From Nonlabens ulvanivorans (GTDB taxonomy: Bacteria > Bacteroidota > Bacteroidia > Flavobacteriales > Flavobacteriaceae): DNA of 64,000 nt. The DNA is taken from the NCBI RefSeq assembly GCF_000755285.1, contig NZ_BBMK01000001.1:620001-684000 (forward strand), read 5' to 3'. This document shows positions 4,037 to 61,115 of the stretch, piece by piece (positions within the stretch are counted from its first letter, which is position 1; each line of letters begins with the position of its first letter). Below the pieces are notes generated by a model. It searched no databases and had not been told where the DNA came from. It saw only the letters and a list, made by a program, of their open reading frames with translations. The position numbers were made by a program, and so were the translations under genes.

Positions 4037-4989
4037 TTAAGAATTAAGAGCTGTTTTAATGGATTGCATCATGGCTTTCCCACCATTTGCAAATACTTTT
4101 TCTGATTGCGCTTTCGCGAAAGCGAGACCACGATCATTATTAACTTTATCAAGTGTGATTTGATCTTGCACGTCGATACGTTCTTTACCATCGATGCTTA
4201 AAAGGCAACCTTTAAAGTTAATTTGATTATCAATTACTTGTGCAATAGCGCCTATGGGAGCGGTACAACCACCTTCAAGTTCTCTCAAGAAACGACGCTC
4301 TATATCAACACACAATTGTGTTTGAGCATCATTAAGTTTTGATACTGCTTCTAATACAGCAGTGTTATCACCCATCGCAGTAATCATCATAGCGCCTTGA
4401 GCAGGTGCTGGCACAAAACTGTCTAGGTCTGAATATTCAAATCCGTAATTACCTCTCAATTGAGATAGAAGTCCGATACGATCTAATCCGGCTTTTGCAA
4501 ATATTGCTGCATTCCAGTCTTTATTACTATGTAATTTAGAAAGACGTGTGTTAACATTACCTCTTAAATCAACAATTTTATGGTGTGAATACATGTTGAG
4601 CACTGTGCCTTGCGGCGCAAACTACCAGTTGCGATGGTCATGGCTTCATCTGGATTAAAATTAGATTTATATACTAGAATGTCTTTTTGAGAAGCGCGCT
4701 CAAGCACAGCTGCTTGCACCATACCTTTAGGTAATTGAGTAGGAACGTCTTTAAGACTATGCACTGCAATATCAATATCACCTTTAACTAGTGCGACATC
4801 GAGAGTTTTAGTAAAAATACCAGTGATACCCATTTCATAAAGTGGCTCATCAAGATTAAGGTCACCTTGCGATTTTACAGGTGATAATTCTGCTTGAAAC
4901 CCTAAGGCTTCTAGTTGAGATTGAACAGTTGTGGCCTGCCACATGGCTAGTTGAGAATCCCTTGTGCCTATTCTTATTTTAAGACTCAT
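4037..4989 (-). CDS. hemC: hydroxymethylbilane synthase (frameshifted in this sequence)
   Basis: Porphobilinogen deaminase makes the linear tetrapyrrole in haem synthesis. The N-terminal half (MSLKIRIGTRDSQLAMWQA, HSLKDVPTQLP, ATGSLRRKAQ) and the C-terminal half with the cofactor-binding cysteine (ELEGGCTAPIGA) are in different frames. Restoring one base near 4602 reads RRKAQWLNMY and gives a 317-residue protein of normal length. The start overlaps the end of hemA by 11 bases, so translation is probably coupled. Near the C-terminus the dispersed palindrome (4110-4123) encodes AFAKA. The break is most likely a sequence error, because haem synthesis genes surround it. Confidence 0.9.
4110..4123. 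repeat. dispersed palindrome GCTTTCGCGAAAGC, copy in hemC
   Basis: Perfect copy, extended to 16 bases (4109-4124). On the hemC strand it is read AFAKA. Confidence 0.95.
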
Positions 4990-6242
4990 AACTGCTTAAT
5001 TCTTCTAGTTTAAAGACTTTATTGAGTAAGCTTATCGCCTCTTCAGTACTTTCATCTTCATTGCGTAAATGGTTTGCAAAATGACCAGCAATTTTTTGAA
5101 TAATGCGGTCTGCTAGTACATCTGCTTGTTCGTGATTAAAATCACTGAATTTTGTTCGACTATTTTTAATCTCAGCATCTTTAAGGGTAGAGAGTTTAGT
5201 TTTAAGGGCGTGCATGGTAGGTGCAAACTGTCTAGAAACCATCCACTGTTTAAAATCTGCATGCACGTCTTTGATTATAGCCTGAGCTTGCGGTATGAAA
5301 TTCTCTCTATTTTCAAGTGTCTTATGAGTCACCTTAGATAGTTCATCTAGGTGAATAAGTTTAACGTTATCAAGTTCTGTCACGTTATCATCCACATTTT
5401 TAGGAATAGATAAATCCATGATCAGTAAAGGCTTGTTGGTATGTATAATCTGTTTAGAAACTGTAGGTTTTTGTGCGCCTGTAGCTACTATTATAATGTC
5501 TGATTGAGCAATCTCTTCTTCTAGTTGAGCATAATCTTTAACGATTAAGTCAAATCTTCCTGCGATACGTTCTGCCTTATCTTTTGTACGGTTGATAAGT
5601 GTGATTTGCTTGTTTTCAGTGTGCTTTACTAAGTTTTCACAAGTATTGCGGCCTATTTTACCAGTTCCAAATAGAAGAATCTTTTTTGCAGGTCCGCCAG
5701 CAGGAAAGTTTTCTAAAATGTACTGCGCACTAGCAAAACTTACAGAAGTTGCACCACTACTTAGCTCTGTTTCGGTTTTAATACGCTTACTAGCTTGTAT
5801 CACGCAATTCATTAAACGTTCCATATAGCATTGATCAATCCCATTTTTTTAGAGCGTTTAAAAGCCATTTTAAGCTGTCCTATAATCTCAAAATCACCTA
5901 ATATCTGACTATCTAATCCAGTACCTACTGTGTAGAGATGATTACAGGCGTCATCGTTTTTTTGAATGTATGCGATTTTTTGAAACTCTTCTACGGTACC
6001 GTGTGAATGCTCACATAATAAACGTATTAATTGAAAAGGATGTTGTGCAAACCCATAAAGCTCGGTACGATTACAAGTAGATATTACAGCTAGTGAAGGA
6101 ATGCCTTCTTCTTTTGCTTCTAGTAATAAATTGTTGATCCCTTCTTCGGATAGAGAAAAAAGTCCACGTGTCCCAGCATCGGCTTTACGATAACTAAGAC
6201 CTATACTGTAAAATGAAAAATGTTTGGGCTGAGCTGCGCCAT
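4979..6242 (-). CDS. hemA: glutamyl-tRNA reductase (two frameshifts in this sequence)
   Basis: First committed enzyme of the C5 haem pathway: reduces glutamyl-tRNA to glutamate semialdehyde. Reading the minus strand from 6242 gives MAQLSPNIFHF, then, after adding one base in the A-run at 6210-6213, SIGLSYRKAD and the catalytic-cysteine motif STCNRTELY. A second missing base near 5824 rejoins LINAIMERLMNCVIQASKR. The Rossmann motif ILLFGTGKIGRNTCENL and the dimerisation tail are intact. Corrected length is 421 residues, typical for the family. It overlaps hemC and is divergent from the AraC regulator at 6432. Confidence 0.88.
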
Positions 6243-6263
6243 ATACACTTTGCTAATGAGAAA

Positions 6264-6271
6264 CAAAATTA
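6264..6271 (-). promoter_or_regulatory. candidate -7 element TAATTTTG for hemA
   Basis: On the minus strand TAATTTTG lies about 22 bases before the hemA ATG and fits the Bacteroidota -7 consensus TAnnTTTG. No clear -33 TTG at the right distance was found, so this is tentative. Confidence 0.4.
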
Positions 6272-6326
6272 TAAGACTAATCGTTATTAAAGTAACGCTA
6301 TGGGTTCCAATTTAAACGCAATGAGT

Positions 6327-6334
6327 TACTTTTG
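6327..6334 (+). promoter_or_regulatory. candidate -7 element TACTTTTG for the AraC gene
   Basis: TACTTTTG fits TAnnTTTG and lies ~98 bases before the ATG at 6432, in the divergent hemA/araC intergenic region. Placement alone supports it; no -33 box was identified. Confidence 0.3.
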
Positions 6335-6431
6335 TAATTGTAATTGATAAGATGTACTGTTAAATGGTGTTGTAGACTCTTTTGCAAAAGCAAAACACAT
6401 CTATTTAGAGTAATTATAAATAATAATCCAA

Positions 6432-7307
6432 ATGGAAAATATCGCTAAAGGTGCTGCCGAGGTTACCTTAATTGAAGAAGGCTTTCAGGTAGTAAGATTA
6501 AAGAATGAAACAGATGATGTAGCACATTTTCACCATGATGTGGATAACAGTTATATCCAGTTTCATTTTTGTTTAAAAGGTCAGGTAGATCTAGCTTTTA
6601 ATGAAGGTAGTTATAAGTTAAGTCTTTCAGAACAAAATAGTTATCTACTCTATAATCCTTCTCGAGATTTACCTATTAATCTAGATTTAAAGGGTCATTC
6701 TTGGTTTATATGTGTATTAGTTTCTATAAAAAAATTCCACTCATTATTCTCTCCTGACGCGCAGCACGTGAGTTTCTTAAGTGCCGAAAATAAGGACAAG
6801 AAATATTATGTAGACGGTAGTATATCGCCATCTATGGCTGTAGCATTACACCAGTTGATGAATTATAATTTGAATGATGCAATTAAGAGGCTTTACTTTA
6901 AAGGAAAATCTTATGAGTTAATGTCCTTATACTTCAATAGTCCAGAAGATGCAGATGTTGAGGCGTGCCCATTTCTAGTAGATGAGGACAATATGCGTAA
7001 GATTAAAAAGGCTAAGGAGATCATCATTGACCGCATGACTAATCCGCCATCTCTTAGTGAATTAGCGATGGAGATAGGTTTATCGCTCAAGAAGTTAAAA
7101 GAAGGCTTCAAAGAGGTCTATGGTGATACAGTTTATGGGTTTTTACTGGATCATAAAATGAATTATGCTCGCCAGTTATTAGATAGTGGCCAGCATAATG
7201 TAAATGAGGTAGGATTGAAAGTGGGCTATAGCACCGCGAGCCACTTTATAAGTGCTTTTAAAAAGAAATATGGCACAACGCCTAAGAAATATTTAACGGG
7301 AAATTAA
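6432..7307 (+). CDS. AraC family transcriptional regulator
   Basis: 291 residues. The last ~100 residues carry the double helix-turn-helix of AraC/XylS proteins (LSELAMEIGLSLKKLKEGF; VNEVGLKVGYSTASHFISAF; ending KKYGTTPKKYL). The N-terminal two thirds look like a ligand-sensing cupin-type region (VAHFHHDVDNSYIQFHFCLKG), but the ligand cannot be read from sequence. It is divergent from hemA with a 189-base gap, an arrangement that suggests, without proving, control of haem synthesis or response to iron or haem. Its 3' end is followed at once by a long inverted repeat shared with the convergent gene at 7320. Confidence 0.88.
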   Translation: MENIAKGAAEVTLIEEGFQVVRLKNETDDVAHFHHDVDNSYIQFHFCLKGQVDLAFNEGSYKLSLSEQNSYLLYNPSRDLPINLDLKGHSWFICVLVSIKKFHSLFSPDAQHVSFLSAENKDKKYYVDGSISPSMAVALHQLMNYNLNDAIKRLYFKGKSYELMSLYFNSPEDADVEACPFLVDEDNMRKIKKAKEIIIDRMTNPPSLSELAMEIGLSLKKLKEGFKEVYGDTVYGFLLDHKMNYARQLLDSGQHNVNEVGLKVGYSTASHFISAFKKKYGTTPKKYLTGN

Positions 7308-7310
7308 AAT

Positions 7311-7362
7311 AAAGAGATATTAAGATTGCTTCTTCAGTAATCCTAATATCTCTTTATAAGTT
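7311..7362. terminator. hairpin between convergent genes, overlapping the 3' end of the 7320 gene
   Basis: Two 17-base arms (7311-7327 and 7339-7355) pair with one mismatch around an 11-base loop. The loop and right arm are coding for the minus-strand gene that stops at 7320. The hairpin can end transcription of the AraC gene on the plus strand and probably serves the opposite gene as well. Confidence 0.6.
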
Positions 7363-7877
7363 TTCTTATTATCTGTATGCGCTTTTAGATAATCGTAGAC
7401 CTTATTGATAACATCTTGAGAGGCGCCCAGGTTTTCAAAAATAGTTAGGTCTTGTGACCAATTCTCTATATTACCTATGGTTTCACCGAGGTTTTCACTT
7501 GCAATGGTGACTTCTCTGATTTCTTTGTAGACATCAGCTTTTTTAAATTTTACAATCTCGATATAGAGATCATTAAAAGTCATTTGTTCTACTTTTTTCT
7601 CTTTAGAAATATGAGCGAGCATCGTGTTGAAGATATCCATGTTCCCAAAAAAGTTTACATCAAACTCATCTAAACCACAAGGTCCTAATTTTGCAATTTC
7701 TTTAAAGAGTACATTCTCATTTGCAAAAGATCCATCCAGCATAAAATCAAGTTTTTTTACAAGCTGTGTTTCGCAAGATTGTTCAGGCGATGTTTCAAGT
7801 GGGCTATTTTGTGCTTGTGTGGCCATGGTTAGACACATCACACTAGCAAAAAGGATTTTCTTCAATGTAATTTTCAT
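7320..7877 (-). CDS. secreted protein of unknown function
   Basis: 185 residues starting with a clear signal peptide (MKITLKKILFASVMCLTMATQAQ), so the product is exported to the periplasm or beyond. The mature part is acidic and helical, with two cysteines (SPEQSCETQL and GPCGLDEFDV) that could pair. No family was recognised. It is convergent with the AraC gene and its last codons lie inside the shared terminator hairpin. It may be transcribed alone. Confidence 0.75.
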   Translation of the reverse strand: MKITLKKILFASVMCLTMATQAQNSPLETSPEQSCETQLVKKLDFMLDGSFANENVLFKEIAKLGPCGLDEFDVNFFGNMDIFNTMLAHISKEKKVEQMTFNDLYIEIVKFKKADVYKEIREVTIASENLGETIGNIENWSQDLTIFENLGASQDVINKVYDYLKAHTDNKKTYKEILGLLKKQS

Positions 7878-7949
7878 TTGATTTTATAACGTGTTGTCTT
7901 AATTCTTATTACACTAGGCAAAGAAAATGCCAAAACTACCCGAATCCAA

Positions 7950-9221
7950 CTAAACCATCACATTTTCTGAAATCTTCACTGCTTCTAGCGCTTGTTGAAC
8001 ATCTGCAATAAGGTCGTCGCTATTTTCGACACCTATTGATAAGCGTACCAACGAATGTGTAACTCCTATAGCCTCTGCATGTTCTTCATCTACACCAGCG
8101 TGCGTCATAGAGCGTGGATGCTCTGCAAGACTTTCTGTTCCACCTAAACTTACGGCAAGACGTATTAATCTCAACGAATTCAAGAATTTAAAAGCTTCTT
8201 TTTCTCCACCTTTGATTTCAAAACTAATCATGGCGCCAGGTCCGTCATATTGTTTTTTATAAATAGCATAATTTGGTGAGTCCTGCGGTATTAAACCTAA
8301 GTAGTTAAGCTTGGCAATTTTTGCATGACCATTTAAAAAATTAGCAACTTCAATAGCATTGCATTGCTGTTGCTCCATGCGTATTTTTAATGTTTCAAGG
8401 CTACGCATTAACATCCATCCCGTATGTGGTGAAGCCATGTTTCCTAAAAATGTACGTAGCACTTTTACACGCTGCATGATATCTGCATTACCTAATACGG
8501 CACCAGCAATCAAGTCGCTATGTCCACCGATATATTTAGTAGCACTATACATGACAATATCAGCACCTAGCTGTAATGGATGCTGCCATAATGGTCCCAT
8601 ATAAGTATTATCGACACCTACTAGAACCCTTTTATCATCGGTAGAAAAATGATCTGCAATTTCACGACACATTTCAATATCTATTAAGGCATTAGTAGGA
8701 TTTGCAGGTGTTTCAATATGCATTAGTGCCACTTTATCTGCATATCCAGCATCTTCTACCAGTTTGATAATCTCATTTTTACTCATGCCGGATTTAAAAC
8801 CTAGAGAATGAATACCATATTTAGGTAAAAAGTGGTTGATAAAGTGGTCTGTTCCACCATAAGTAGGTGAACTGTACAGTAAGACCTGTCCTGGCTCTAA
8901 AAATTCCATAAGGACTGTAGATATAGCACTCATTCCACTTTCAAAAACCGCGCAATCATCTGCTTTATCCCATAGGCGTAATCTGTTTTCTAGAATCTCT
9001 AGGTCTGGATTATTGATACGACTGTATATCAATCCCATTTCCTCACCAGGCAATTTATCACGCTTGCCATAAGCGAGTTCAAAGAACGCTTTCCCTTCCT
9101 CGGCACTTTTAAAAACAAAAGTGGAAGTTAAAAAAATAGGACATTTAATAGCGCCTTCAGATAGTTCAGGTTTATAACCATAGGACATCATTAGGCTTTC
9201 GGGTTTCATAGAATCTTTCAT
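7950..9221 (-). CDS. Cys/Met metabolism PLP-dependent enzyme
   Basis: 423 residues of the cystathionine gamma-synthase/methionine gamma-lyase family. PLP-binding features are visible: SGMSAIS near residue 95-101, Asp204 in VGVDNTYMGP, and the Schiff-base lysine Lys229 in SATKYIGGHSD. Members carry out transsulfuration, O-acetylhomoserine sulfhydrylation or methionine gamma-lysis. Sequence inspection does not separate these, and the neighbours give no pathway. The N-terminal segment SEGAIKCPIFLTSTFVFKSAEEGKAFF resembles the flavobacterial type often annotated as methionine gamma-lyase-like. Confidence 0.88.
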   Translation of the reverse strand: MKDSMKPESLMMSYGYKPELSEGAIKCPIFLTSTFVFKSAEEGKAFFELAYGKRDKLPGEEMGLIYSRINNPDLEILENRLRLWDKADDCAVFESGMSAISTVLMEFLEPGQVLLYSSPTYGGTDHFINHFLPKYGIHSLGFKSGMSKNEIIKLVEDAGYADKVALMHIETPANPTNALIDIEMCREIADHFSTDDKRVLVGVDNTYMGPLWQHPLQLGADIVMYSATKYIGGHSDLIAGAVLGNADIMQRVKVLRTFLGNMASPHTGWMLMRSLETLKIRMEQQQCNAIEVANFLNGHAKIAKLNYLGLIPQDSPNYAIYKKQYDGPGAMISFEIKGGEKEAFKFLNSLRLIRLAVSLGGTESLAEHPRSMTHAGVDEEHAEAIGVTHSLVRLSIGVENSDDLIADVQQALEAVKISENVMV

Positions 9222-9408
9222 AATATGGGCTGTTTAAAACTAAACCGAATGTACTTTTTTTTTGAGGATTCAATCGATTTCGTAAGCGATTTTTTTATGA
9301 ATCGTATTAAGTAGCTTTTTAAATGACGATTCTGTAAAGCAAGACCTACGTTTTTGTTATTTAAGATTTTCTTAACTTTAAGGTTTCAACCTATAAAACC
9401 AATTAATT

Positions 9409-9837: not shown

Positions 9838-10763
9838 CTATATAAAAATATCTCGCGCTACCCTAAAAGTATTAGCATGCGCTTCAATTATTAATTTAAT
9901 TTCAGGAGAATAGCCGCCACCCATACTACACTGTACTGGAATGCGGTTATTTTTTGGGCTCTTCGCTTTCGCGAAAGCGGATAAAGCATACGCATCACGA
10001 CGCTTACAACCATCTAAACTCATACCAAGCCTGCCTAGTTTATCTGTAGCAAGAACATCTACACCACAAAGGTAAAAGATGAAATCTGGTTTTTCTTGAG
10101 CTATCAAATCGGGTAGTGTATTCTTAAGTTCATTGAGATAAGTATCATCATCTGCTCCATCTGGTAAGGCAATATCTAGATCAGATATTTCTTTTTTAAA
10201 TGGATAATTACTGGCTCCATGCATGGAGAATGTAAAGACGCTATCATCATTTCTAAAAATTTCGGCAGTTCCGTTTCCTTGATGAACGTCTAGGTCAACA
10301 ATAAGAATTTTTTCTGCTAGCTGGTGATGTTGTAAATATCTGGCAGCGATTGCCTGGTCGTTTAATAGGCAAAAAGCCTCACCATGGTCAGTGTAAGCAT
10401 GGTGTGTACCGCCGGCGATATTCATTGCGACTCCATGTTTAAAGGCTTTCACACATCCATCAATAGTTCCTTGTGCAATGCGCAATTCTCTTTCTACTAA
10501 TTGATTGCTTAAGGGAAAGCCTAGTTTACGTGCTGCTTTACGGTCTAGATTAAGGCTTTTAAGATTTTCTAAATATTCTGATGTGTGAACACGCAATACA
10601 TCTATATCACTACATAATATACTGGGCTCAAAAAATCTGTCAGATTAGCGGTTCCTTCTAGTAAAAGTTGCTGTGGTAATAGCTCATATTTTACCATAGG
10701 AAAACGATGGCCATCTGGTAAAGGATGTTTATAAATAGGATGAAAGGCAATAGGGAAATTCAA
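9838..10763 (-). CDS. histone deacetylase family hydrolase (frameshifted in this sequence)
   Basis: Zinc-dependent deacetylase/acetylpolyamine amidohydrolase fold. Visible: the active-site pair in GGTHHAYTDHGEAF, the metal-binding DLDVHQGNGTA, and the C-terminal SMGGGYSPE. The first ATG is at 10596, but the strand codes for the conserved N-terminus upstream (LNFPIAFHPIYKHPLPDGHRF). That joins if one T is added to the run at 10630-10635 (DFFEP ... LRVHTSEYL). The corrected frame from a TTG at 10763 gives 308 residues. The true substrate is unknown. The palindrome at 9965-9978 encodes AFAKA in a loop before the MGGGYS motif. Confidence 0.82.
9965..9978. repeat. dispersed palindrome, copy in the deacetylase-like gene
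   Basis: Perfect copy (16 bases at 9964-9979), read as AFAKA in a loop just before the conserved MGGGYS motif. Confidence 0.95.
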
Positions 10764-10861
10764 GAAACCGACATTATTTAGAATACTTCAAATTTAAGCA
10801 CAAGATGATTACCATATTCTTTATAATTTTTAAACTATTGTATAGGTGTTAGGTATTAAAT

Positions 10862-11272: not shown

Positions 11273-11330
11273 GCACTTATTCTTCTATCGCTTTAATGCG
11301 ATAACATTACTTATTTATTAAGGCCACACC

Positions 11331-12374: not shown

Positions 12375-12385
12375 ACAAGTATAAG

Positions 12386-14955: not shown

Positions 14956-15699
14956 ATGAAGAAAATGACCTATTATTTTAATGCCTCTGATAAGCCAGTT
15001 GTACTATTGTTGCACGGTTTTCTAGGTAGTAAAAGCCAGTGGACTGCAGTAGCTAAATTATTAGAAAATAGATTTAATATTTTAAATGTTGAATTACCTG
15101 GTCATGGTCAATCGCCTTCATTTGCGCAATATTCTATCAGCGATCTTGCTTTTGAAATCTCACAATATTTAATAGAAAATACTATTCATAAAGTACATTT
15201 TGTAGGTCATAGTATGGGTGGTTATATAGGATCTGCTTTCGCGAAAGCGTATCCTCAACAACTTTATTCTTTAACCCTGTTGAACAGTATTATGGGGCCC
15301 GATAGTGTAGCCCGTAAAGTGATGAGAGATCGAGCGATTCAACTGATTGATCGTTTTCAAAACGCTTATGTTTCAATGGCAATCAATAATCTTTTTACAC
15401 CTCAAGAGCATGAGGTTTATAAGGATATTATTGATGGTATGAGAGTAGCGTCTCAAGAGATGACTCTAGAAACTGTAATGGCAGCGTTGCGTGCTATGAG
15501 AGATCGACCATCACAGCTAGGAAATGTTGATGTGCCCGTTCAATATATTTATGGAAGTCGAGATGCAGTTATCGAAAAATCTATTATCGAGACTGAGTTA
15601 AATCAAATGATTCATGTCGGTATAAGTGTTGAAGGTGGACACATGTTATTGCTTACTCATCCTGAAGAAGTTATTAATAAAATACACTTTATCGATTAA
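14956..15699 (+). CDS. alpha/beta hydrolase
   Basis: 247 residues with the full alpha/beta-hydrolase set: oxyanion HG in VLLLHGFLGSKSQW, nucleophile elbow GHSMGG (Ser near residue 88), a late acid and His in EGGHMLLLTHPEEV. The family is related to MenH and other small esterases; the substrate cannot be stated. The perfect palindrome (15235-15248) lies in the coding region directly after the elbow and encodes SAFAKA, a segment that fits the natural helix there. It is divergent from the peroxidase gene. Confidence 0.88.
   Translation: MKKMTYYFNASDKPVVLLLHGFLGSKSQWTAVAKLLENRFNILNVELPGHGQSPSFAQYSISDLAFEISQYLIENTIHKVHFVGHSMGGYIGSAFAKAYPQQLYSLTLLNSIMGPDSVARKVMRDRAIQLIDRFQNAYVSMAINNLFTPQEHEVYKDIIDGMRVASQEMTLETVMAALRAMRDRPSQLGNVDVPVQYIYGSRDAVIEKSIIETELNQMIHVGISVEGGHMLLLTHPEEVINKIHFID
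15235..15248. repeat. dispersed palindrome, copy in the alpha/beta hydrolase gene
   Basis: Perfect 14-base copy, read as AFAKA. Confidence 0.95.
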
Positions 15700-17677: not shown

Positions 17678-17691
17678 GCTTTCGCGAAAGC
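17678..17691. repeat. dispersed palindrome between sufA and sufB
   Basis: Perfect intergenic copy (16 bases at 17677-17692), 17 bases before the sufB ATG; no T-run, so not a terminator. Confidence 0.95.
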
Positions 17692-20414: not shown

Positions 20415-20428
20415 GCTTTCGCGAAAGC
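20415..20428. repeat. dispersed palindrome between sufC and sufD
   Basis: Perfect intergenic 14-base copy. Confidence 0.95.
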
Positions 20429-24422: not shown

Positions 24423-24932
24423 ATGGAAGGCGAGATCATTAACAGAGTCGCAAACTCAAAACTTCAGGTCATCGACTTAGAAGATTATTATCCTGTAGGA
24501 CCGCGCAGTGAGATAGATATTTCTCAATGGTTGATGGAAAGTATTGTGTTAGTAGAATCACGCTTTCGCGAAAGCTTAAAAAACACAGACTTTACTGTGT
24601 TTAAGGGTCATTATGTTGCAGTAAATTGCTCTACAGATGCGATCATACCGCAATGGGCATGGATGTTATTACAAATGGAGCTAACTGGTATAGCAGAAAA
24701 GGTCGTGCTAGGATCATTAGAACATCTAGAGACAGCATTGTATATTCCTATTATTGATCAATTAGACATCAATCCCTACATCGGTATGCCAGTAATTGTA
24801 AAAGGTTGTTCTAATAAACCGGTACCAATTGGAGCTTATATGAAAATTACAGAGCGATTGCACAATGTTGCAAAATCAGTAATGTACGGCGAGGCCTGTA
24901 GTGCTGTTCCCGTTTATAAGAAAAAAAAGTAG
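24423..24932 (+). CDS. DUF2480 family protein
   Basis: 169 residues. The order of features (IINRVANSKLQVIDLEDYYP, FKGHYVAVNCSTDAIIPQWAWMLL, VIVKGCSNKPVPIGAYMKI) is that of the Bacteroidota DUF2480 family, regularly found at the end of suf operons; the function is unknown. Two conserved cysteines are visible. The palindrome at 24562-24575 falls in the coding region and is read in the FRES frame (ESRFRESLKN), different from the AFAKA frame used in other genes. Confidence 0.82.
   Translation: MEGEIINRVANSKLQVIDLEDYYPVGPRSEIDISQWLMESIVLVESRFRESLKNTDFTVFKGHYVAVNCSTDAIIPQWAWMLLQMELTGIAEKVVLGSLEHLETALYIPIIDQLDINPYIGMPVIVKGCSNKPVPIGAYMKITERLHNVAKSVMYGEACSAVPVYKKKK
24562..24575. repeat. dispersed palindrome, copy in the DUF2480 gene
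   Basis: Perfect copy, read in the second frame as FRES. Confidence 0.95.
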
Positions 24933-28555: not shown

Positions 28556-28569
28556 GCTTTCGCGAAAGC
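28556..28569. repeat. dispersed palindrome upstream of the PorP/SprF gene
   Basis: Perfect intergenic copy (16 bases at 28555-28570). Confidence 0.95.
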
Positions 28570-36745: not shown

Positions 36746-37819
36746 ATGTATAAATATCTCATTACCAGTGCTTTTGTTTTTTTCGCTTTCGCTAAAGCGT
36801 CTCATGCACAACAAGATAAGGACGACTCAAAACAGTATAAAATACAAACTGTTGCGTTTTACAACCTAGAAAATCTCTACGATACAGAAGATGATCCTAC
36901 TATTAATGATGAAGCTAGTCCTATGATGGAAATGGCAGAAGGATTAAGAGAAGACGTGTATCAAAAGAAATTAACAAACATGGCACGTGTTATTAGAAAG
37001 ATAGGTGCAGATAAGTCTGGAACTGCTCCTGCATTAATAGGTGTTTGTGAAGTAGAAAACCGCAAGGTCCTTGAAGATCTAGCTAGTCACGAGCTTTTAA
37101 GAGACTATGATTATGGTATCGAGCATTATGATTCACCAGACAGGCGTGGTATTGATGTTGCCTTACTATATAAGAAGAGTGAATTTAAAGTGATTAACTC
37201 ACAATCGAGACGATTAGATATATCAGATCCAGGTAGCGGTAGACGTATTTTTACTCGTGATCAGTTAGTGGTGACAGGAGAACTTAATGGCGATCCTATG
37301 AGTTTAATTGTTAATCACTGGCCATCACGTAGTGGTGGAGAAATGCGCAGTAGAGCAAAACGTGTTGCAGCAGCAGCTTTAAATCAGCAAATTATCGATT
37401 CCCTGCATGTTACTAATGCAATGGCCAAAATTATGACCATGGGTGATTTAAATGATGACCCTACTAATGAAAGTGTTTTAGTAACACTTAATGCCCAAGC
37501 AGATCAAGAAGATGTAAGACCTCAGATGGTTTACAATCCATACATTCAAATGTTGAAAGATGGTTATAATACACTTTCATACCGTGATGCAGGAAATATT
37601 TTTGACCAGATCATGCTAACATATCCTTTATTAAAACAGGCAAATCAGGAAGGTTACTTCTATTATCATGCTGGGATTTATAATCCTAGTTTTATGACTA
37701 ATAAATCTGGACGTTACAAAGGTTATCCATTGCGTAGTTATAATAATGGTAGCTTCACAAATGGCTTCAGTGATCACTTCCCTGTCTATGTTTATCTCAT
37801 AAAGGAAGAGAAAGAGTAA
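36746..37819 (+). CDS. secreted endonuclease/exonuclease/phosphatase family protein
   Basis: 357 residues. Signal peptide MYKYLITSAFVFFAFAKASHAQ, then the EEP core: FYNLENLYDTEDDPT, VCEVENRKVLEDL, VNHWPSRSGGEMRS, TMGDLNDDPTNES and C-terminal GFSDHFPVYVYL. A paralogue is at 27388 (same motif order). It is divergent from the TonB receptor/DUF5689 pair, suggesting an exported nuclease or phosphodiesterase that feeds the receptor; this is inference. A one-base variant of the palindrome (36785-36798) encodes the AFAKA part of the signal peptide. Confidence 0.85.
   Translation: MYKYLITSAFVFFAFAKASHAQQDKDDSKQYKIQTVAFYNLENLYDTEDDPTINDEASPMMEMAEGLREDVYQKKLTNMARVIRKIGADKSGTAPALIGVCEVENRKVLEDLASHELLRDYDYGIEHYDSPDRRGIDVALLYKKSEFKVINSQSRRLDISDPGSGRRIFTRDQLVVTGELNGDPMSLIVNHWPSRSGGEMRSRAKRVAAAALNQQIIDSLHVTNAMAKIMTMGDLNDDPTNESVLVTLNAQADQEDVRPQMVYNPYIQMLKDGYNTLSYRDAGNIFDQIMLTYPLLKQANQEGYFYYHAGIYNPSFMTNKSGRYKGYPLRSYNNGSFTNGFSDHFPVYVYLIKEEKE
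36785..36798. repeat. variant palindrome in the EEP gene signal peptide
   Basis: GCTTTCGCTAAAGC: one substitution at the centre, protein reading AFAKA kept. Confidence 0.85.
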
Positions 37820-38234: not shown

Positions 38235-39142
38235 TTAATAAGTGAAAGTGATTTGATTCTTTTTAATGGAAACATGCATGTCTGTGCCTAGTTTTAGGCT
38301 ACGGTTATCTTTTATATGCCAGCAGGGAAATTAAAAATTACGGGGAAATTGTAACTATTGGTTAAATCTGTAATGATTTCGCGAGCATTTTTACCAAAAG
38401 GAATATCATGATCTCTCATATCGCTCATGCCGCCTACAATGAGTCCTTTTAAATGGTCCAAGTGTCCAGCTCTTTTAAGTCCGTACATCATACGCTCGAT
38501 ATGATATAAGTATTCATCCACATCTTCTATAAAAAGAAAACAACCATCTGTTACAGGAAAACTATTAGACCCTAATAAACTATAGAGTATCGATAAATTA
38601 CCACCTACGATAGGAGCTTTTATTTCTTGAATTTGCAGTCCTTGCTTATTCGTAATTTTAATTACTTGAATTTGTCCTAATAGAGCCTTTTTAAAACTTT
38701 CTACGCAACCTTTTGATTTATCACTAAATTCCAAAGGCATAAAATTATGTAAGCTAGCTATTCCTAAGTTTTGTAAATGACCATGTAGTACCGTAACGTC
38801 TGAGTAACCTATGATTAGCTTTTTAAAATCCGCTTTCGCGAAAGCGGAAAAATTAATATCATCGATGATCTGTACGGTTCCATAGCCACCACGAGCGATC
38901 CATATGGCGTCGATATCTTCATCATTTAAAGCAACTTGAAAATCAGTAACTCTTAAGCTAGTTGTACCGCCAAATTGATGATTTATGGCTCCTATAGTTT
39001 TACCATAACTCACGCGTAAACCCCCCCATGACTCTAATAACTCACGTGCTGGCCTTAAGTCAGCCTGAACAGCGCTTCTTGCTGTACAAAGAATTCGTAC
39101 ATGATCATTCTTTTTTAAACCGGTATATGTAAATTCTCTCAA
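38235..39142 (-). CDS. LD-carboxypeptidase, peptidase family S66 (C-terminal frameshift in this sequence)
   Basis: Cytoplasmic LD-carboxypeptidases trim murein tetrapeptides during cell-wall recycling. Visible: WIARGGYGTVQIIDDI, FIGYSDVTVLH-type motif (LIIGYSDVTVLHGHL, nucleophile Ser), and the C-terminal region LKGLIVGGMSDMRD. The stop at 38312 follows FNFPAGI; restoring one base near 38318 continues as FPAGHIKDNRSLKLGT to 38235, 302 residues, and brings in the conserved catalytic His. The palindrome at 38832-38845 encodes SAFAKA before the GYSD motif. Confidence 0.87.
38832..38845. repeat. dispersed palindrome, copy in the LD-carboxypeptidase gene
   Basis: Perfect copy; the palindrome extends to 18 bases (CCGC...GCGG). 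Read as AFAKA. Confidence 0.95.
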
Positions 39143-42342: not shown

Positions 42343-42356
42343 GCTTTCGCGAAAGC
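42343..42356. repeat. dispersed palindrome between the DUF1501 gene and metG
   Basis: Perfect intergenic copy; extends to 18 bases (ACGC...GCGT). Confidence 0.95.
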
Positions 42357-45553: not shown

Positions 45554-46684
45554 TTAATCCTTCCACTCCGCAATAAAAAGATTCGTATCACGCCCACCAC
45601 CGTTGTTACGGTTAGAAGAGAACGCAAGGTATTTCCCGTTGTTTGAGAATACAGGGAATGCATCAAAAGTCTCACCGTGAGTGATGCGTTCTAGACCAGT
45701 TCCATCTGTATTAATCATATAAAGATTGAAAGGGAAACCACGCTCTGCCTCAAAGTTTGAAGAGAACAATACTCGCTTACCATCTGGTAAAAAGAAAGGT
45801 GACCAATTAGCATTTCCTAACTGCGTTAACTGGCGTAAATCAGAACCGTCTGCATTACAAATGTAGAGTTCCATCTCTGTAGGCTGTACTAATCCTACTT
45901 TCAATAAGTCTTTGTATTCTTTGATTTCAGCTTCGGTCTTAGGACGTGAAGAACGAAATATCAACTGTGTTCCATCTGGAGAGAAAAACGCGCCGCCATC
46001 ATAACCTAGTTCAAAGGTGATTTGTTTTACATCACTACCATCTATATTCATAGTGTATAACTCGAGATCACCACTACGATCACTTGTAAAAACGATTTTA
46101 TCACCTTGTGGAGAAACTGTAGGCTCTGCATCATAGCCTTTTTCTTCAGTTAATTGCGCCGTAATATTTCCATCAAGATCTGCTACAAAAATGTCATAAC
46201 TGTCATAAATAGGCCATACATATTTCCCATTTTCTTTAAGAGGTGTGTCTGGACAATCGTCCATTTTCAAATGCGTACTAGCATAAATGATATGTTCATT
46301 ATCGGGCAAGAAATAAGCGCAAGTTGTACGTCCTTTTCCAGTAGAGATCATTTTAGGCGCGCTTTCGCGAAAGCTGTCTCCATTATTCATTAAGAACATT
46401 TGATCACATTCTACATCCCAAGCAGTATTGTTGCTTTGGAAAACGAGTTGTTTATCATCAAAACTCCAGTAAGCCTCAGCATTATCGCCACCAAAGGTTA
46501 CTTGCTGGATATCCTTAAAGTGATTTTCACCTTCCATGATTAATGGATTCTGGCTGTCAGGAACTATGCTTTCTGCGTTTTGAACTGTTTTATCCTCATT
46601 ATTTACAGTGTCTTTACAGCTTACAACAGCCATTAATGCGATTAGAAATAGGAACGTTCTCATGGATGATTTAATTTTGAGCAA
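45554..46684 (-). CDS. TolB-like PD40 beta-propeller lipoprotein
   Basis: About 369 residues from the likely start at 46663 (MRTFLFLIALMAVVSCKDT, lipobox Cys). Several WD40-like PD40 blades are visible: AEPTVSPQGDKIVFTSDRSG, GAFFSPDGTQLIFRSSRP, WSPFFLPDGKRVLFSSNFE, FPVFSNNGKYLAFSSNRN. This is a periplasmic or surface beta-propeller; the partner is unknown. The palindrome at 46361-46374 is coding, read as GDSFRESAP. It is divergent from an M28 peptidase gene with a 15-base gap, so the two may work together. Confidence 0.85.
   Translation of the reverse strand: MLKIKSSMRTFLFLIALMAVVSCKDTVNNEDKTVQNAESIVPDSQNPLIMEGENHFKDIQQVTFGGDNAEAYWSFDDKQLVFQSNNTAWDVECDQMFLMNNGDSFRESAPKMISTGKGRTTCAYFLPDNEHIIYASTHLKMDDCPDTPLKENGKYVWPIYDSYDIFVADLDGNITAQLTEEKGYDAEPTVSPQGDKIVFTSDRSGDLELYTMNIDGSDVKQITFELGYDGGAFFSPDGTQLIFRSSRPKTEAEIKEYKDLLKVGLVQPTEMELYICNADGSDLRQLTQLGNANWSPFFLPDGKRVLFSSNFEAERGFPFNLYMINTDGTGLERITHGETFDAFPVFSNNGKYLAFSSNRNNGGGRDTNLFIAEWKD
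46361..46374. repeat. dispersed palindrome, copy in the PD40 lipoprotein gene
   Basis: Perfect copy, read as FRES on the coding strand. Confidence 0.95.
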
Positions 46685-48170: not shown

Positions 48171-48184
48171 GCTTTCGCGGAAGC
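48171..48184. repeat. variant palindrome in the TPP riboswitch leader
   Basis: GCTTTCGCGGAAGC, one substitution, between aptamer and receptor start. Confidence 0.85.
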
Positions 48185-51126: not shown

Positions 51127-51140
51127 GCTTTCGCGAAAGC
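51127..51140. repeat. dispersed palindrome upstream of greA
   Basis: Perfect intergenic 14-base copy, 43 bases before the greA ATG. Confidence 0.95.
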
Positions 51141-53532: not shown

Positions 53533-53545
53533 GCTTTCGCGAAGC
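53533..53545. repeat. variant palindrome upstream of the desaturase gene
   Basis: GCTTTCGCGAAGC: one A fewer than the consensus, perhaps a further sequence deletion error. Confidence 0.8.
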
Positions 53546-53632
53546 GAACTAAACATTAAAACACGTACTTTTAAAGTCTATTAAAATATATATGAATATC
53601 AAGCCCCCCTAAAAAATATACGCATCGAGGTA

Positions 53633-54598: not shown

Positions 54599-54620
54599 AA
54601 AAGAAATTGTAAATAAATTG

Positions 54621-54652
54621 AAAGCCCTAGATTTAGTCTAGGGCTTTTTTGT
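54621..54652 (+). terminator. Rho-independent terminator after the desaturase gene
   Basis: Stem AAAGCCCTAGA/TCTAGGGCTTT (11 bases, perfect), five-base loop, followed by T-run. Confidence 0.9.
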
Positions 54653-54731
54653 TTTTATCAAGTATAGGCTCTTCGGCTTGATTATTGTTTGTTGGTTACA
54701 ATGTCTTATTAAGTTATTACATTTACGTTTC

Positions 54732-56189: not shown

Positions 56190-56193
56190 ATCC

Positions 56194-56207
56194 GCTTTCG
56201 CGAAAGC
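56194..56207. repeat. dispersed palindrome between the kinase and enoyl-CoA hydratase genes
   Basis: Perfect intergenic copy (16 bases at 56193-56208), four bases after the kinase stop. Confidence 0.95.
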
Positions 56208-56299
56208 GTTACTAGGAATTCTTATCATTTTTTTAAAGATTCAAATTCTTACTTCACTGCGGTTATGTCTATTTTTACAACAGTAAAAAATAATAGACC

Positions 56300-57070: not shown

Positions 57071-57090
57071 AAACAAAACTTTTAAAAATC

Positions 57091-57122
57091 AAAAAAGGGC
57101 GGATTTATTTCCTCCCTTTTTG
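57091..57122 (+). terminator. probable terminator after the enoyl-CoA hydratase gene
   Basis: Arms AAAAAGGG-C-GG and CC-T-CCCTTTTT pair with one mismatch around an eight-base A/T loop, followed by GG and T-rich sequence. Confidence 0.6.
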
Positions 57123-57160
57123 GTTTAGATTTTGTCGTATGATCTTTAAACAGGTTGGAT

Positions 57161-58317
57161 TTATCCTCTAAATAAGAAAAAATCGTCTTTCATATCCTCA
57201 ATTTTTTCATCCTTATTGGTGATGATGTAGTCGAGTGCTTTTTCTGTAAATTCTAATCCTTTATCTGTGAGAGAAACAATTTGATTGTCGATGGTAATCA
57301 TATTGTTCTTTTCGGCAAGTTGCAATACAGAATTTGCCTTTACCTTACGCCAGTTGATATGCTCTTGAAGATGTGCTACACGTCGCTCGTTTTCACTATC
57401 ATGATTGTTCAGGTGTAATAAAAAAGTAAGTAATGAAACCTCTATACGTTGTCTACTTTGCCTAAACAATACAGCGATTAATCCTTTGCTAGGTGCAAAA
57501 GGTATATTATTAAAAATAGAAGTCCTAATACCGTTGTAATAGAACCTGAAATAGAAGCGTCTAGCCAGCGCGCAAACCAGTATCCACCTATCGCACTTCC
57601 TACTCCAAAAAGAACTGAAAGCAATAGCATTTTACGCAAGTCAGTCGTTAATAAATAAGCTGCTGCTGCAGGAGTAATCATCATTGCAACTACAAGAATA
57701 GCGCCTACAGCATCAAAAGCTGCTACTGTAGTCACAGAGGCAACACTCATTAAACCATAATGTAAAATAACAGGTGAAAATCCTAAGGCACTAGATAAAC
57801 CAACATCAAACGTGCTGATTTTTAATTCTTTATAAAAAGCGAGTAATAATACAAGTGTAATCACTAGAATCACTGAAATAGTCCATAATCCTTTGGGTCC
57901 AAAATCAGCGCCATCTATAATAAGTCTATCAAAAGGTGCATAAACCAGATCACCTAATAAGACAGCGTCTACATCTAGATGCACATCGTTTGCATTCTGG
58001 GCAATTAATATAACACCTATACTAAACAGTGCTGGAAAAACTAATCCTATTGCGGTATCTTCTTTAACCAGACCCGTTTTTTGAATTAATTCTACAAGAA
58101 CCACAGTGATAATACCACTAAAAGCGGCAAAAATAATTAACCATGGAGATGCTAGATCATGAGTGATAAAAAACCCAATTACAATCCCTGGTAAAATAGA
58201 ATGACTAATGGCATCACTTATTAATGCCATCTTGCGCAATACAAGAAAAACACCTGGAATAGCACAGGCAGCAGCAGTTACGGTAGCTATAAGCTGTATG
58301 TCAATCATAGGACTCAT
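57161..58317 (-). CDS. metal ABC transporter permease with C-terminal winged-helix-like extension (frameshifted)
   Basis: The N-terminal ~280 residues are an ABC-3-type (ZnuB/MntB) permease with about eight membrane helices (LRKMALISDAISHSILPGIV). The stop at 57478 is bypassed by adding one base in the A-run 57497-57500, giving LFAPSKGLIAVLFRQSRQRIE and a ~100-residue soluble tail (EHINWRKVKANSVLQLAEKN; IVSLTDKGLEF) that reads as a winged helix. Total 385 residues. The start overlaps the stop of the upstream permease (ATGA). Last gene of the importer operon. Confidence 0.85.
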
Positions 58318-59425
58318 GACTCTGGTAGATTATTGTTGTATAAATTTGCTGCAGTCTCAAATCCGTCTTCAGTCATGGACCAGTTTTGGCCTTGAATAGT
58401 GATCCAGTCTTTCTCTTCTAATTTAGATAGTGTTTTTTTAGTAAACCCTTGAAAGCTATTTAAAATCCTAATGGCGTGCGGTCGTGATATATCATCGTGA
58501 TCGCGCACAATATCATACATAAAATACAGTGTTTTCTTGAGCTGAAGATCACGTCTGTTTTTGATTAACCTAATTTGTTTAAAAATGATACCTCTTTCTG
58601 GAGAAAATAAGAAGGAAACTATAACAAATATGGCCGCTACTAAGACGATTACTGGACCTGTAGATAAGTTATTTTGACTTGCACTGATAGCGGTACCAAA
58701 TACACCTGAAAAAGCGCCAAATATAGCCGCAAGGATAACCATAGTACTCAGGCTATTGGTCCATTGTCTTGCAGCAGCGGCAGGCGCGAGTAACATTGCA
58801 CTCATTAAAACAACTCCAACCGTTTGTAGACCTATTACAATAGCGAGAACGATAAAAAAGCTTATCAAGCCATCAATGAATTTAGTATTAAATCCTAAAG
58901 TCATTGCATAGTTCTTGTCAAATAGCAGTAGCTTAAATTCTTTCCAGAATAATAGCATCACTAAGAGGCTAATCCCAGTAACGATGACCATTAATAACAC
59001 ATCACTTTCTACCAAAGTCGCTGCTTGACCAAAAAGATATTTATCTAATCCAGCTTGATTTGCATTAGGCTGTTTTTGAATATAGGTTAACAACAACATC
59101 CCAAAACCAAAGAACAAGCTTAAGATAAGTCCCAAAGCGGTATCTGTTTTTAAATGTGTCTTAGTGGTAATGCCTCGTATCCAGAAAACGCCTATTAGGC
59201 CACTCACTAAAGCACCTAACAGTAAAACATTAGAATCTTTTGCGCCAGTAATCAAAAAAGCAACCGCTATACCTGGTAATGCAGCATGTGAAATGGCATC
59301 TCCTAATAGGCTTTGCTTGCGCAATACAGCAAACTTCCTAGCATACCGCATATAGCGCCTAGAACAGCAGTTCCTAACGTAATCGTACGTAAAGTATAGT
59401 CGGTAAAGTATTGAGTTATGTCCAT
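58314..59425 (-). CDS. metal ABC transporter permease with C-terminal winged-helix-like extension (frameshifted)
   Basis: Reading from the ATG at 59425 gives MDITQYFTDYTLRTITLGTA; adding one base in the A-run 59331-59333 joins MLGSFAVLRKQSLLGDAISH to the long frame, 370 residues. Permease features: SLLGDAISHAALPGIAVAFLI and eight or so helices. The C-terminal ~80 residues are soluble and winged-helix-like (AIRILNSFQGFTKKTLSKL; WSMTEDGFETAANLY). The start lies two bases from the ATPase gene stop. The second permease overlaps its end. Confidence 0.86.
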
Positions 59426-59426
59426 A

Positions 59427-60164
59427 TTATTGTTGAACCGCTACTTTATAATTAATACCATAGGTTTTAGTCAGGTTATCATCATTAAAAATATCCTTTA
59501 CTGGACCTGTTGCGATATGTTTCACATTTAAAAAGGTTACCCAATCAAAATATTCGGGTACTGTCTGTAAATCGTGATGAACTACAATAACTGTTTTGCC
59601 AGCTTTACGCAGTTCTTTTAAAATATTAATAATAGCGATCTCTGTAGTAGCGTCTACACCTTGAAATGGCTCATCCATAAAGTAAATAGCAGCATTTTGA
59701 ACTAATGCTCGAGCTAGAAAAATACGCTGTTGTTGTCCTCCAGAAAGCTGGCTTATCTGTCTGTTTTTAAAAGCAAGCATGCCTACTTTTTCAAGAGCTT
59801 CTAGAGATAGTTTCTTCTCCTTTGCACCAGGTCTTTTAATCCATCCCAGTGAGCCATAAGTACCCATCATAACCACATCTAGTGCTGTAGTTGGGAAGTC
59901 CCAGTCTACACTACCTTTTTGCGGTACATAAGCTACTTTATCACGTTGCTTTGTATAAGGTTTACCATAGATAGCAACAGATCCTGCAATAGGATCAATG
60001 ATACCTAATATAGATTTAATTAATGTCGATTTTCCCGCACCATTAGGCCCTACGATAGCCATCAAAACTCCTTCAGGAATAGATAAATCTATGTCCCATA
60101 ATACGGGCTTATAGTTATAAGCAACGGTTAAATCATCTACGGCTACAGCTATTTTAGTTCCCAT
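59427..60164 (-). CDS. metal ABC transporter ATP-binding protein
   Basis: 245 residues: Walker [10 protein letters not shown], signature [10 protein letters not shown], Walker [14 protein letters not shown], switch His in VVHHDLQTV. The family is the ZnuC/MntB-type ATPase for Mn2+, Zn2+ or Fe2+. The start overlaps the stop of the binding-protein gene (TAATG), so translation is coupled. Confidence 0.92.
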
Positions 60165-61072
60165 TATTTAAGTGCGTTAACGATCGTGTTGACATTATGT
60201 CTATACATTCCTATATAGGTTCCTTCATCAGTACCTGCACTACCTAGTGCGTCACTAAAAAGTTCTCCACCTATTTTAACTTTATGATTTTGTGCTCTAA
60301 CTGCAGCTTGTAGCGCCTCTACAGTACGTCTAGGTACGCTACTTTCAACAAAAACAGCTTTTATTTTATGTTCAATGATAAATTGGGTAATGCGTTGTAC
60401 ATCTTTTACTCCAGCCTCTGTAGCCGTAGAAAGCCCTTGTAGACCTACCACTTCAAAGTTAAAAGAACGACCATAATAATTAAAAGCATCGTGTGCAGTA
60501 ACTAGAATACGTTTTTCTTGTGGTAACTGATTAATTTTATCGCTTAGTTCTGTTTTAAGAGCAGAAATTTTTTCAAGATATAAATCCCTGTTTTTTTCAA
60601 AGGCAACTTTGTTTTCTGGATTGTTTTTAACTAATGTTTCGGTTACATAATGAGTCATTTGTGTCCAGTAATCAATGTCAAACCATATGTGAGGATCATA
60701 ATTACTAGCAAAGTAATCACTACCTATAAGAGTTGATTTATCTAATGCATTACTGATGGCAACAGTTGATTTACCGCGCTCATCCATTTTTTCAAATACA
60801 TCTACAAGCTTCCCTTCTAGGTGCAGTCCATTGTAAAAAATAATATCTGCATTTGCTAGTTTGGTCATATCACCTTCACTAGGTTTATAGAGATGTGGAT
60901 CTACACCACTACCCATCATGCCTTCTACTTCGATAAGATCACCACCTATATTCTCAACTAGGTCTGTGATCATTGTAGTGGTTGTAACGACTTTTAATTT
61001 ACCGTTATTTTCTTTTTGTGTTCCACAGCTTACGAGCAATATGGATAGTAGTAAGTATAAGATATGTTTCAT
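60164..61072 (-). CDS. metal-binding lipoprotein of an ABC importer
   Basis: 302 residues: lipobox VSCGT in [19 protein letters not shown], then a cluster A-I solute-binding protein (ZnuA/MntC-like). Metal-ligand motifs: [40 protein letters not shown], and late SDALG. There is no His-rich loop of the ZnuA type, which favours manganese (or iron) over zinc, though weakly. It is followed by ATPase and two permeases. Confidence 0.9.
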
Positions 61073-61091
61073 AATTGTGTGTTGTGATTAC

Positions 61092-61105
61092 GCTTCCGCG
61101 AAAGC
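61092..61105. repeat. variant palindrome between the binding-protein and barrel genes of the metal operon
   Basis: GCTTCCGCGAAAGC, one substitution; sits in the only sizeable gap within the operon. Confidence 0.85.
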
Positions 61106-61115
61106 GTATTAGAAA

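What the first reader, a model, noticed from the sequence alone, without database searches (positions are those of the whole stretch)
4109..61106. A 14-base palindrome, GCTTTCGCGAAAGC, is dispersed about every 4 kb
Seen directly: 12 perfect and 4 near-perfect copies (4110, 9965, 15235, 17678, 20415, 24562, 28556, 36785, 38832, 42343, 46361, 48171, 51127, 53533, 56194, 61092). A given 14-mer of this composition should be absent from 64 kb of low-G+C DNA by chance. Copies are spread out: none closer than ~1.8 kb to the next, largest gap ~8 kb. There is no T-run, no target duplication and no conserved long flank, so it is neither terminator nor insertion element. It resembles in distribution the cyanobacterial HIP1 palindrome or the DNA-uptake signals of Haemophilus and Neisseria. 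Its role here (uptake signal, methylase site, nucleoid or repair protein site) is open; I know of no established function.
Basis: partly seen in the sequence, partly recalled or inferred. Interest (0 to 1): 0.82.

Follow-up and report, generated by a model that had tools for sequence, protein, structure and literature searches.

The report
Genus-wide dispersed 14-base DNA palindrome
Two groups of marine bacteria carry the same 14-letter DNA palindrome hundreds of times, spread out and strongly preserved along their chromosomes; it looks like a 'self' tag read by a still unknown protein, perhaps during DNA uptake.

Summary
The window holds 12 exact and 3 one-mismatch copies of GCTTTCGCGAAAGC, plus a one-base-deletion copy at 53533. 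The genome (Nonlabens by inference) holds 487 exact copies, reversed control 0. All genomes searched in three genera are rich: Nonlabens 23 of 23 (288-857 copies), Dokdonia 18 of 18 (369-905), Dokdonia's sister genus 1 of 1 (408). No other genome in a 397-genome family sample exceeds 19, and several of those low counts are clusters in what look like transferred islands.

Against a related species at 88.8% identity, 70 of 76 aligned sites keep all 14 bases; third codon positions inside coding sites are 193 of 197 identical (background 75%). Species differences are mostly single substitutions, not insertions. Sites avoid each other below about 3 kb, are under-represented in genome-specific DNA, and are absent from two Nonlabens phages. 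The outward strand on each side is G-poor for about 25 bases.

Best reading: a palindromic self-recognition site maintained like a DNA-uptake sequence and read by a dimeric protein. This function is inferred, not shown; a site for an intracellular chromosome protein is nearly as likely. HIP1-type methylase tag, Chi, hairpin and insertion element fit less well.

The parts
4110..4123 (.). exact palindrome, inside an ORF
   Evidence: in related species G416 two substitutions
9965..9978 (.). exact palindrome, inside an ORF
   Evidence: identical in G416
15235..15248 (.). exact palindrome, inside an ORF
   Evidence: identical in G416
17678..17691 (.). exact palindrome, intergenic
   Evidence: not aligned in G416
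20415..20428 (.). exact palindrome, intergenic
   Evidence: identical in G416
24562..24575 (.). exact palindrome, inside an ORF
   Evidence: identical in G416
28556..28569 (.). exact palindrome, intergenic
   Evidence: identical in G416
36785..36798 (.). one-mismatch copy, inside an ORF
   Evidence: the same one-mismatch form in G416
38832..38845. exact palindrome; in an ORF only if a TTG start is allowed (38312-39142)
   Evidence: identical in G416
42343..42356 (.). exact palindrome, in a short, doubtful ORF
   Evidence: identical in G416
46361..46374 (.). exact palindrome, inside an ORF
   Evidence: identical in G416
48171..48184 (.). one-mismatch copy near the start of a TonB-receptor-like ORF
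   Evidence: exact in G416
51127..51140 (.). exact palindrome, intergenic
   Evidence: two substitutions in G416
53533..53546 (.). copy lacking one A, intergenic
   Evidence: G416 has full length with two substitutions
56194..56207 (.). exact palindrome, intergenic, just after an ORF end
   Evidence: identical in G416
61092..61105 (.). one-mismatch copy, intergenic
   Evidence: exact in G416

Best explanation
GCTTTCGCGAAAGC is the core of a symmetric double-stranded recognition site of roughly 50-60 bp: the core, usually G as the next base outward, and an outward strand poor in G for about 25 bases on each side. It marks the chromosomes of Nonlabens, Dokdonia and Dokdonia's sister genus about once every 3.6-8.7 kb. 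Most likely it works like a DNA-uptake (self-recognition) sequence: a dimeric receptor of the ComEC-dependent transformation pathway of flavobacteria favours DNA that carries the site, and recombination of that DNA keeps restoring and spreading the site in the shared genome, with about one site per exchanged fragment being enough. Shown here: the site and its extent, its dispersion, the exclusion below about 3 kb, conservation at fixed positions, change mainly by point substitution, under-representation in genome-specific DNA, and the genus-level distribution. Inferred: reading by a dimeric protein, the link to DNA uptake, and spread by transformation. The receptor is not identified.
For: Hundreds of copies in 42 of 42 genomes of three genera and at most 19 in the other genomes of the family sample. 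70 of 76 aligned sites identical at 88.8% identity; third codon positions 193 of 197 against 74.8%. 13 of the 14 aligned G416-only sites differ from own by one base. Under-represented in genome-specific blocks, 2 of 79 (7.2 expected) and 3 of 90 (10.6 expected). 34 of 79 own sites lie in the 15% of DNA outside ORFs. Exclusion below 3 kb: 12 pairs against 39.6 expected; PMC2397512 ties uptake-sequence spacing to exchanged-fragment length and reports core bias, permissive location and strong conservation (passages). Graded flanks in coding and intergenic sites alike. No copy within two mismatches in two Nonlabens phages. ComEC in 48 of 48 genomes. The related flavobacterium Riemerella columbina prefers its own DNA in transformation (PMC7965970, section read).
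Against: No experiment is known for these genera (search listings only). A type IV pilus or secretion-type ATPase, the basis of known uptake-sequence systems, is over the cut-off in only 5 of 19 motif-rich genomes; Riemerella anatipestifer's transposon screen found ComEC, DprA, ComF, RecA and unrelated outer proteins, so pili may not be needed (PMC8459023, passages). Known uptake sequences are not palindromes (PMC1939737, passages). In Neisseria many recent sites appeared by recombination rather than by point mutation (PMC2397512, abstract passage), unlike here. Identity around sites is ordinary beyond about 100 bp, so there is no sign of interspecies exchange near sites. ComEC is equally present in motif-poor genomes. 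A symmetric site suits intracellular dimeric proteins at least as well.
Confidence: 0.42

Rival explanations
1. The palindrome is the binding site of an intracellular dimeric protein that organises, segregates or repairs the chromosome and needs about one site every few kilobases.
For: Symmetric half-sites read independently of each other, extended flanks, exclusion below about 3 kb, strong conservation of position, and absence from two Nonlabens phages all suit such a protein. Most motif-rich genomes tested lack a type IV pilus-type ATPase.
Against: No origin-terminus gradient was seen in one subset of one genome (100 of 106 forward places listed, P 0.22). Hundreds of redundant sites would each need to be under effective selection. 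Sister genus G144 does without (9 copies). No candidate protein was identified.
Confidence: 0.36
2. A Chi-like site: the palindrome stops an AddAB- or RecBCD-type nuclease arriving from either side and starts recombination.
For: Density near one per 5 kb is like Chi in E. coli (recalled; 1,008 copies in E. coli K12 by PMC1939737, passage); a palindrome would work from both sides; absent from two phages.
Against: Known Chi sites are short and asymmetric (recalled). The symmetric double-stranded footprint with graded flanks is not expected of a sequence read as a single strand. 40 kb from each of ten other genera held no comparable dispersed palindrome. Nuclease genes were not examined.
Confidence: 0.09
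3. A HIP1-like tag produced by a DNA methyltransferase, with sites accumulated through methylation-directed repair as proposed for cyanobacteria.
For: A dispersed palindrome that changes by point mutation and spreads to saturation; the cyanobacterial model also predicts saturation once most bases lie near a site (PMC4390886, section 3.4 part 1 read).
Against: In HIP1, one-base deviants sit mostly outside the methylase target (PMC4390886 abstract); here 29 of 43 deviants fall inside the central TCGCGA. CGCG outside the exact sites is not enriched (own 350 seen, 448 expected). TCGCGA is (48 seen, 29 expected), but near-copies were not masked and account for part of that. The site is 14 bp plus long flanks. 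Methylase genes were not examined.
Confidence: 0.07
4. A structured element acting as a hairpin (terminator, cruciform, RNA signal) or a small mobile repeat (REP- or MITE-like).
For: The 14-mer can fold (-2.1 kcal/mol as DNA) and a 24-mer consensus folds well (-7.5, z -2.98). Two 51-bp window sites also fold better than shuffles (z -2.13 and -2.96).
Against: The two flanks of one site are no more complementary than shuffled flanks, except marginally at +1 in Dokdonia (P 0.046). The bare 14-mer folds no better than its shuffles (z -0.21). 45 of 79 own sites are inside ORFs, with no fixed distance to gene ends. Aligned differences between species are mostly single substitutions, not insertions. 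No Rfam match in the window.
Confidence: 0.03

Closest known systems
DNA uptake sequence (DUS, Neisseriaceae) and uptake signal sequence (USS, Pasteurellaceae)
   Same: Hundreds of dispersed copies, coding and non-coding, preference for permissive positions of the core genome, few copies in newly acquired DNA, strong conservation, more even spacing than random, extended flanks (compared with passages of PMC2397512 and PMC1939737).
   Different: Perfect palindrome of 14 bp; Bacteroidota; most carriers tested lack a type IV pilus-type ATPase; lower density (one per 3.6-8.7 kb against about 1.1-1.5 kb in Neisseria); exclusion below 1 kb in Nonlabens; uptake effect not tested.
HIP1, the highly iterated palindrome of cyanobacteria (GCGATCGC)
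   Same: Dispersed palindrome at high copy number through coding and intergenic DNA.
   Different: Longer site with graded flanks; deviants lie mostly inside rather than outside the centre; restricted to three genera; no methylase link tested.
Chi recombination hotspot
   Same: Comparable density; absent from two phages of the host genus.
   Different: Chi is short, asymmetric and read as single-stranded DNA (recalled); this site is symmetric with extended flanks.
Palindromic binding sites of chromosome proteins such as ParB, Noc, SlmA and MatP (recalled)
   Same: Palindromic, non-regulatory, on the chromosome.
   Different: Those have about ten to a few tens of sites, often confined to one chromosome region (recalled); here 288-905 per genome, with no regional gradient seen in one subset.

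Membership tests
DUS/USS uptake sequence | Short motif in hundreds of copies, far above chance, in all members of a lineage | tested here: met
DUS/USS uptake sequence | Over-represented in core, scarce in newly acquired DNA | tested here: met
   2 of 79 and 3 of 90 sites in genome-specific blocks; P 0.02 and 0.005; one species pair
DUS/USS uptake sequence | Enhances uptake or transformation of DNA | not testable with these tools
   bench experiment needed
DUS/USS uptake sequence | Type IV pilus machinery in carriers | tested here: not met
   PF00437 over cut-off in 5 of 19 motif-rich genomes (4 of 29 others); so it is not filed as a member of this family
DUS/USS uptake sequence | ComEC channel in carriers | tested here: met
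   19 of 19 motif-rich, but also 29 of 29 others, so not discriminating
HIP1 | Methyltransferase target at the centre, deviants outside it | tested here: not met
   29 of 43 one-mismatch copies deviate inside TCGCGA
HIP1 | Cognate orphan methyltransferase, methylated site | not tested
   no methylation data; methylase genes not searched
Chi | Asymmetric, orientation-biased motif | tested here: not met
   the word is its own reverse complement
Chi | Attenuates the recombination nuclease | not testable with these tools
   bench experiment needed
REP/MITE-like mobile repeat | Copies gained by insertion | tested here: not met
   of 84 aligned G416 sites, 70 identical, 13 one substitution, 1 three; 6 more sites did not align and could not be judged
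Hairpin or intrinsic terminator | Compensating flanks, intergenic, fixed position after genes | tested here: not met
Chromosome-organising protein site | Specific cytoplasmic binding protein | not testable with these tools
   needs pull-down or ChIP

The most novel reading that the evidence does not exclude
These genera would then form one exchange community marked by a common tag.
Probability: 0.3. Interest if true: 0.92.

Novelty: new variant of a known kind. Interest (0 to 1): 0.82.

Why it matters
Short words that tag a whole chromosome are known from few bacterial groups, and for one of them the reader protein is still a prediction (PMC12616744, start of abstract). Here one 14-bp word marks all 42 genomes searched of three genera, and its copies are conserved at synonymous positions about as strictly as protein-determining ones. 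That predicts a dedicated DNA-binding protein that can be fished out with the palindrome. The word also serves as a tag of donors: islands in other genera that carry it every few kilobases probably came from, or through, a host of this kind. If it is an uptake sequence, self-recognition in transformation arose again in Bacteroidota, apparently without a need for type IV pili.

Tried and rejected
Hairpin or cruciform: flanks of one site are not complementary beyond composition. The right half, GCGAAAGC, recalls the very stable DNA mini-hairpin (recalled); one literature search (listing only) and one fold (the 8-mer alone is unfolded under these parameters) led nowhere. Methylase centre: deviants fall inside it. 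'Dialects' in other genera: 40 kb from each of ten other genera held no comparable palindrome among words seen at least 4 times after a low-complexity filter; G168 and G021 held repeated non-palindromic 14-mers that I did not pursue. Origin-terminus gradient: P 0.22 in one subset of one genome. Shared site positions between Nonlabens and Dokdonia: only one own site fell in aligned coding DNA, not shared. The rpoB-rpoC gap holds an exact site in 9 of 9 motif-rich loci (4 Nonlabens, 4 Dokdonia, G190) and in 0 of the 4 motif-poor loci checked, out of 21 motif-poor loci fetched; one locus only. Sites found in one species only are not closer to other sites than shared ones (P 0.22). Relatives of motif-bearing viral contigs among named phages: none for L116, Flavobacterium, Cellulophaga and other phages below 60% protein identity for one protein of L107. 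PMC3478194 and PMC5771137, which came up, were checked by passages and use 'palindromic' for CRISPR only.
Full report
WHAT IS THERE. The window holds 12 exact copies of GCTTTCGCGAAAGC, three one-mismatch copies, and a copy lacking one base at 53533. It lies at C25:620001-684000 of a 3.09-Mb genome in 25 contigs with 487 exact copies; the word read backwards occurs 0 times. In 464 kb of that contig (220001-684000, 15% of the genome) there are 79 exact copies against 0.0002 expected at Markov order 3, 0.55 at order 5 and 26 at order 6, where the word largely predicts itself; 24 copies have one mismatch, 7 two, 13 three.

WHERE IT OCCURS. Of 397 genomes in the family sample, 80 have any copy; six have hundreds and the other 74 have 1-19; the backwards control reaches at most 1 per genome. 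By genus: the window's genus 23 of 23 with 288-857 copies, Dokdonia 18 of 18 with 369-905, genus g190 1 of 1 with 408. In 395 genomes drawn over the phylum, partly the same genomes, 22 have a copy and only the window's own has more than 6. Names are inferred: G206 has a contig of 483,439 bases like NZ_REFV01000001.1 of Dokdonia sinensis; G421, in the window's genus, has a contig of 2,403,690 bases like BBFL7's; the only other repeatedly named rich genus is Nonlabens. G190 is unnamed. In an rpoB tree of 29 genomes G190 is sister to four Dokdonia (96/88), motif-poor G144 is next, and three Nonlabens form a separate clade; starred branches force at least two changes of the trait. So either the same 14 letters were gained twice, which suggests transfer of a reader gene, or once with several losses.

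ANATOMY. By a simple longest-ORF rule, 45 of 79 own sites are inside ORFs and 34 outside, though only 15% of the DNA is outside; the Dokdonia sample gives 23 and 21, G190 24 and 10; there is no fixed distance to gene starts or ends. In coding sites of own and Dokdonia, 38 of 68 read AFAKA and the rest use the other two frames. The next base outward is G in 0.89 (own), 0.90 (Dokdonia) and 0.65 (G190) of half-sites. From +4 to +12 the outward strand has 2-6% G against 16-20% background, rising to 8-11% at +13 to +25 and near background beyond, in coding and intergenic sites of both genera; in G190 the effect is weak. The depletion is similar upstream and downstream of transcription (0.055 and 0.078), and the two flanks of a site are not complementary beyond composition except marginally at +1 in Dokdonia. 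This fits half-sites in double-stranded DNA read by a symmetric protein (inference).

SPACING. Gaps under 1 kb: own 0 of 78 (12.2 expected), G416 0 of 89 (15.2), Dokdonia G206 sample 1 of 43 (8.5), G190 sample 0 of 33 (5.2). Pairs closer than 3 kb: own 12 (39.6 expected), G416 9 (49.8), G206 14 (28); beyond 3 kb there is no deficit, and a slight excess at 3-5 kb in G416 and at 3-4 kb in G206. The exclusion is weaker in Dokdonia: the first 100 sites of G397 include gaps of 197 and 606 bp, and G397 was not tested against a random model.

EVOLUTION. Own against G416 (same genus; 88.8% identity over the 91% that aligns): 70 of 76 aligned own sites identical over 14 bases, against 29% (coding) and 38% (intergenic) of ordinary 14-mers; third codon positions in coding sites 193 of 197 identical against 74.8%; three own sites did not align. 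Of the window's 12 exact copies, 9 are identical in G416, 2 carry two substitutions, 1 does not align. G416's 90 sites: 70 shared, 13 differ in own by one base, 1 by three, 6 unaligned. For the 12 window sites: G431 9 exact of 11 aligned, G421 10 of 12, and the more distant G417 3 of 4 and G420 4 of 4 aligned. Genome-specific blocks hold 2 of 79 own (7.2 expected, P 0.02) and 3 of 90 G416 sites (10.6 expected, P 0.005). Identity around sites is ordinary beyond about 100 bp; third-position identity is raised, 0.79-0.86, within 50 bp. Copy number does not rise significantly with genome size; density falls with size in Dokdonia (13 genomes at least 90% complete, Spearman -0.70, P 0.008), not significantly in Nonlabens (20 genomes, -0.18). 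The 43 one-mismatch copies of the own, G206 and G190 samples vary at half-site positions 0, 1, 4, 5 and 6 (9, 5, 16, 12, 1), never at 2 or 3; 33 of 43 are transitions. Within the Dokdonia lineage, sites keep their positions between genera: in sufS, three Dokdonia and G190 share one (26 of 30 loci looked at), and in comEC a site lies 74 bp before the domain match in G397, G398 and G190 (only genomes whose listed places reach the gene).

FOREIGN DNA. Phages P12024S and P12024L of Nonlabens hold no copy within two mismatches in 35,700 and 35,652 bases; they are annotated alike, so this is little more than one observation. Some viral contigs that carry the word look temperate: an integrase in L099, a transposase in L108; L116 has head and lysis genes; hosts are unknown. 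Several low-count genomes hold the word in clusters: all 16 copies of G076 in 78 kb, 12 of 17 of G051 in 38 kb; G287 holds 11 of 19 in one 62-kb region and 7 of 19 in a 31-kb one. A 933-bp pair recurs in seven genomes (G101, G215, G087, G078, G076, G287, G160). In two regions whose proteins I looked at (L007, L012) the neighbours look like heavy-metal efflux pumps, metal ATPases and a regulator, by eye, with no family search. In G144, G329, G042 and genus g127 the few copies are mostly scattered.

MECHANISM. The features match what PMC2397512 reports for neisserial uptake sequences: core bias, permissive location, strong conservation, spacing tied to fragment length (abstract and passages). 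A benefit that saturates at one site per fragment explains the exclusion zone, because such a word almost never arises by chance beside an existing one. Against this, a type IV pilus or secretion ATPase is over cut-off in only 5 of 19 motif-rich genomes, known uptake sequences are not palindromes, and competence in these genera was not found in print (listings; one search listed 15 of 647 papers). Riemerella, also placed in Flavobacteriaceae by its authors, transforms with ComEC, DprA, ComF, RecA and unrelated outer proteins (PMC8459023, passages), and R. columbina prefers its own DNA although no convincing motif was found (PMC7965970, section read). ComEC occurs in 48 of 48 genomes, rich and poor alike. 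I put uptake at 0.42 and an intracellular chromosome protein at 0.36.

NOVELTY. None of the held papers contains the 14-mer or its 12-mer core; ten contain the 10-mer core, none of them about these bacteria by title. Searches for uptake sequences or iterated palindromes with Flavobacteriaceae, Dokdonia, Nonlabens, Krokinobacter or Bacteroidetes showed no description in their listings (two searches listed 15 of 647 and 10 of 3,605). Most subscription journals and preprints are not held, so a description elsewhere cannot be excluded. Because the pilus feature was tested and not met and no uptake effect was tested, I do not file it as a DUS or USS; it is a new variant of the kind 'dispersed chromosome-tagging word'.

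Noticed in passing
L005-L024 (islands in other genera), G076:C3:32331-110029, G051:C6:1640-39803: Heavy-metal-resistance-like islands in other flavobacterial genera carry the palindrome every few kilobases, with a conserved 933-bp pair, as if they came from a motif-rich donor.
   Followed up: partly
L099, L103, L108, L116, L141 (viral contigs): Temperate-looking viral contigs of unknown host carry the palindrome with the usual G on its right side; L099 and L141 share the same 38-bp context.
   Followed up: partly
L386-L415, rpoB-rpoC gap: An exact site 7-39 nt after the rpoB ORF in 9 of 9 motif-rich loci and 0 of 4 motif-poor loci checked.
   Followed up: partly
G397:C1:104330, G190:C1:478804, G398:C9:101340: A site 74 bp before the ComEC domain match at the same offset in two Dokdonia and in the sister genus.
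   Followed up: no
G000:C25:1081391-1085178: rpoB of the window's own genome reads as two pieces, probably a frameshift error of the assembly.
   Followed up: no
L366-L367 (G168) and L382-L383 (G021): Non-palindromic 14-mers repeated 13 times (G168) and 38 times (G021) within 40 kb.
   Followed up: no
genus g127 in the phylum sample: Some genomes of this genus carry 1-4 scattered exact copies.
   Followed up: no
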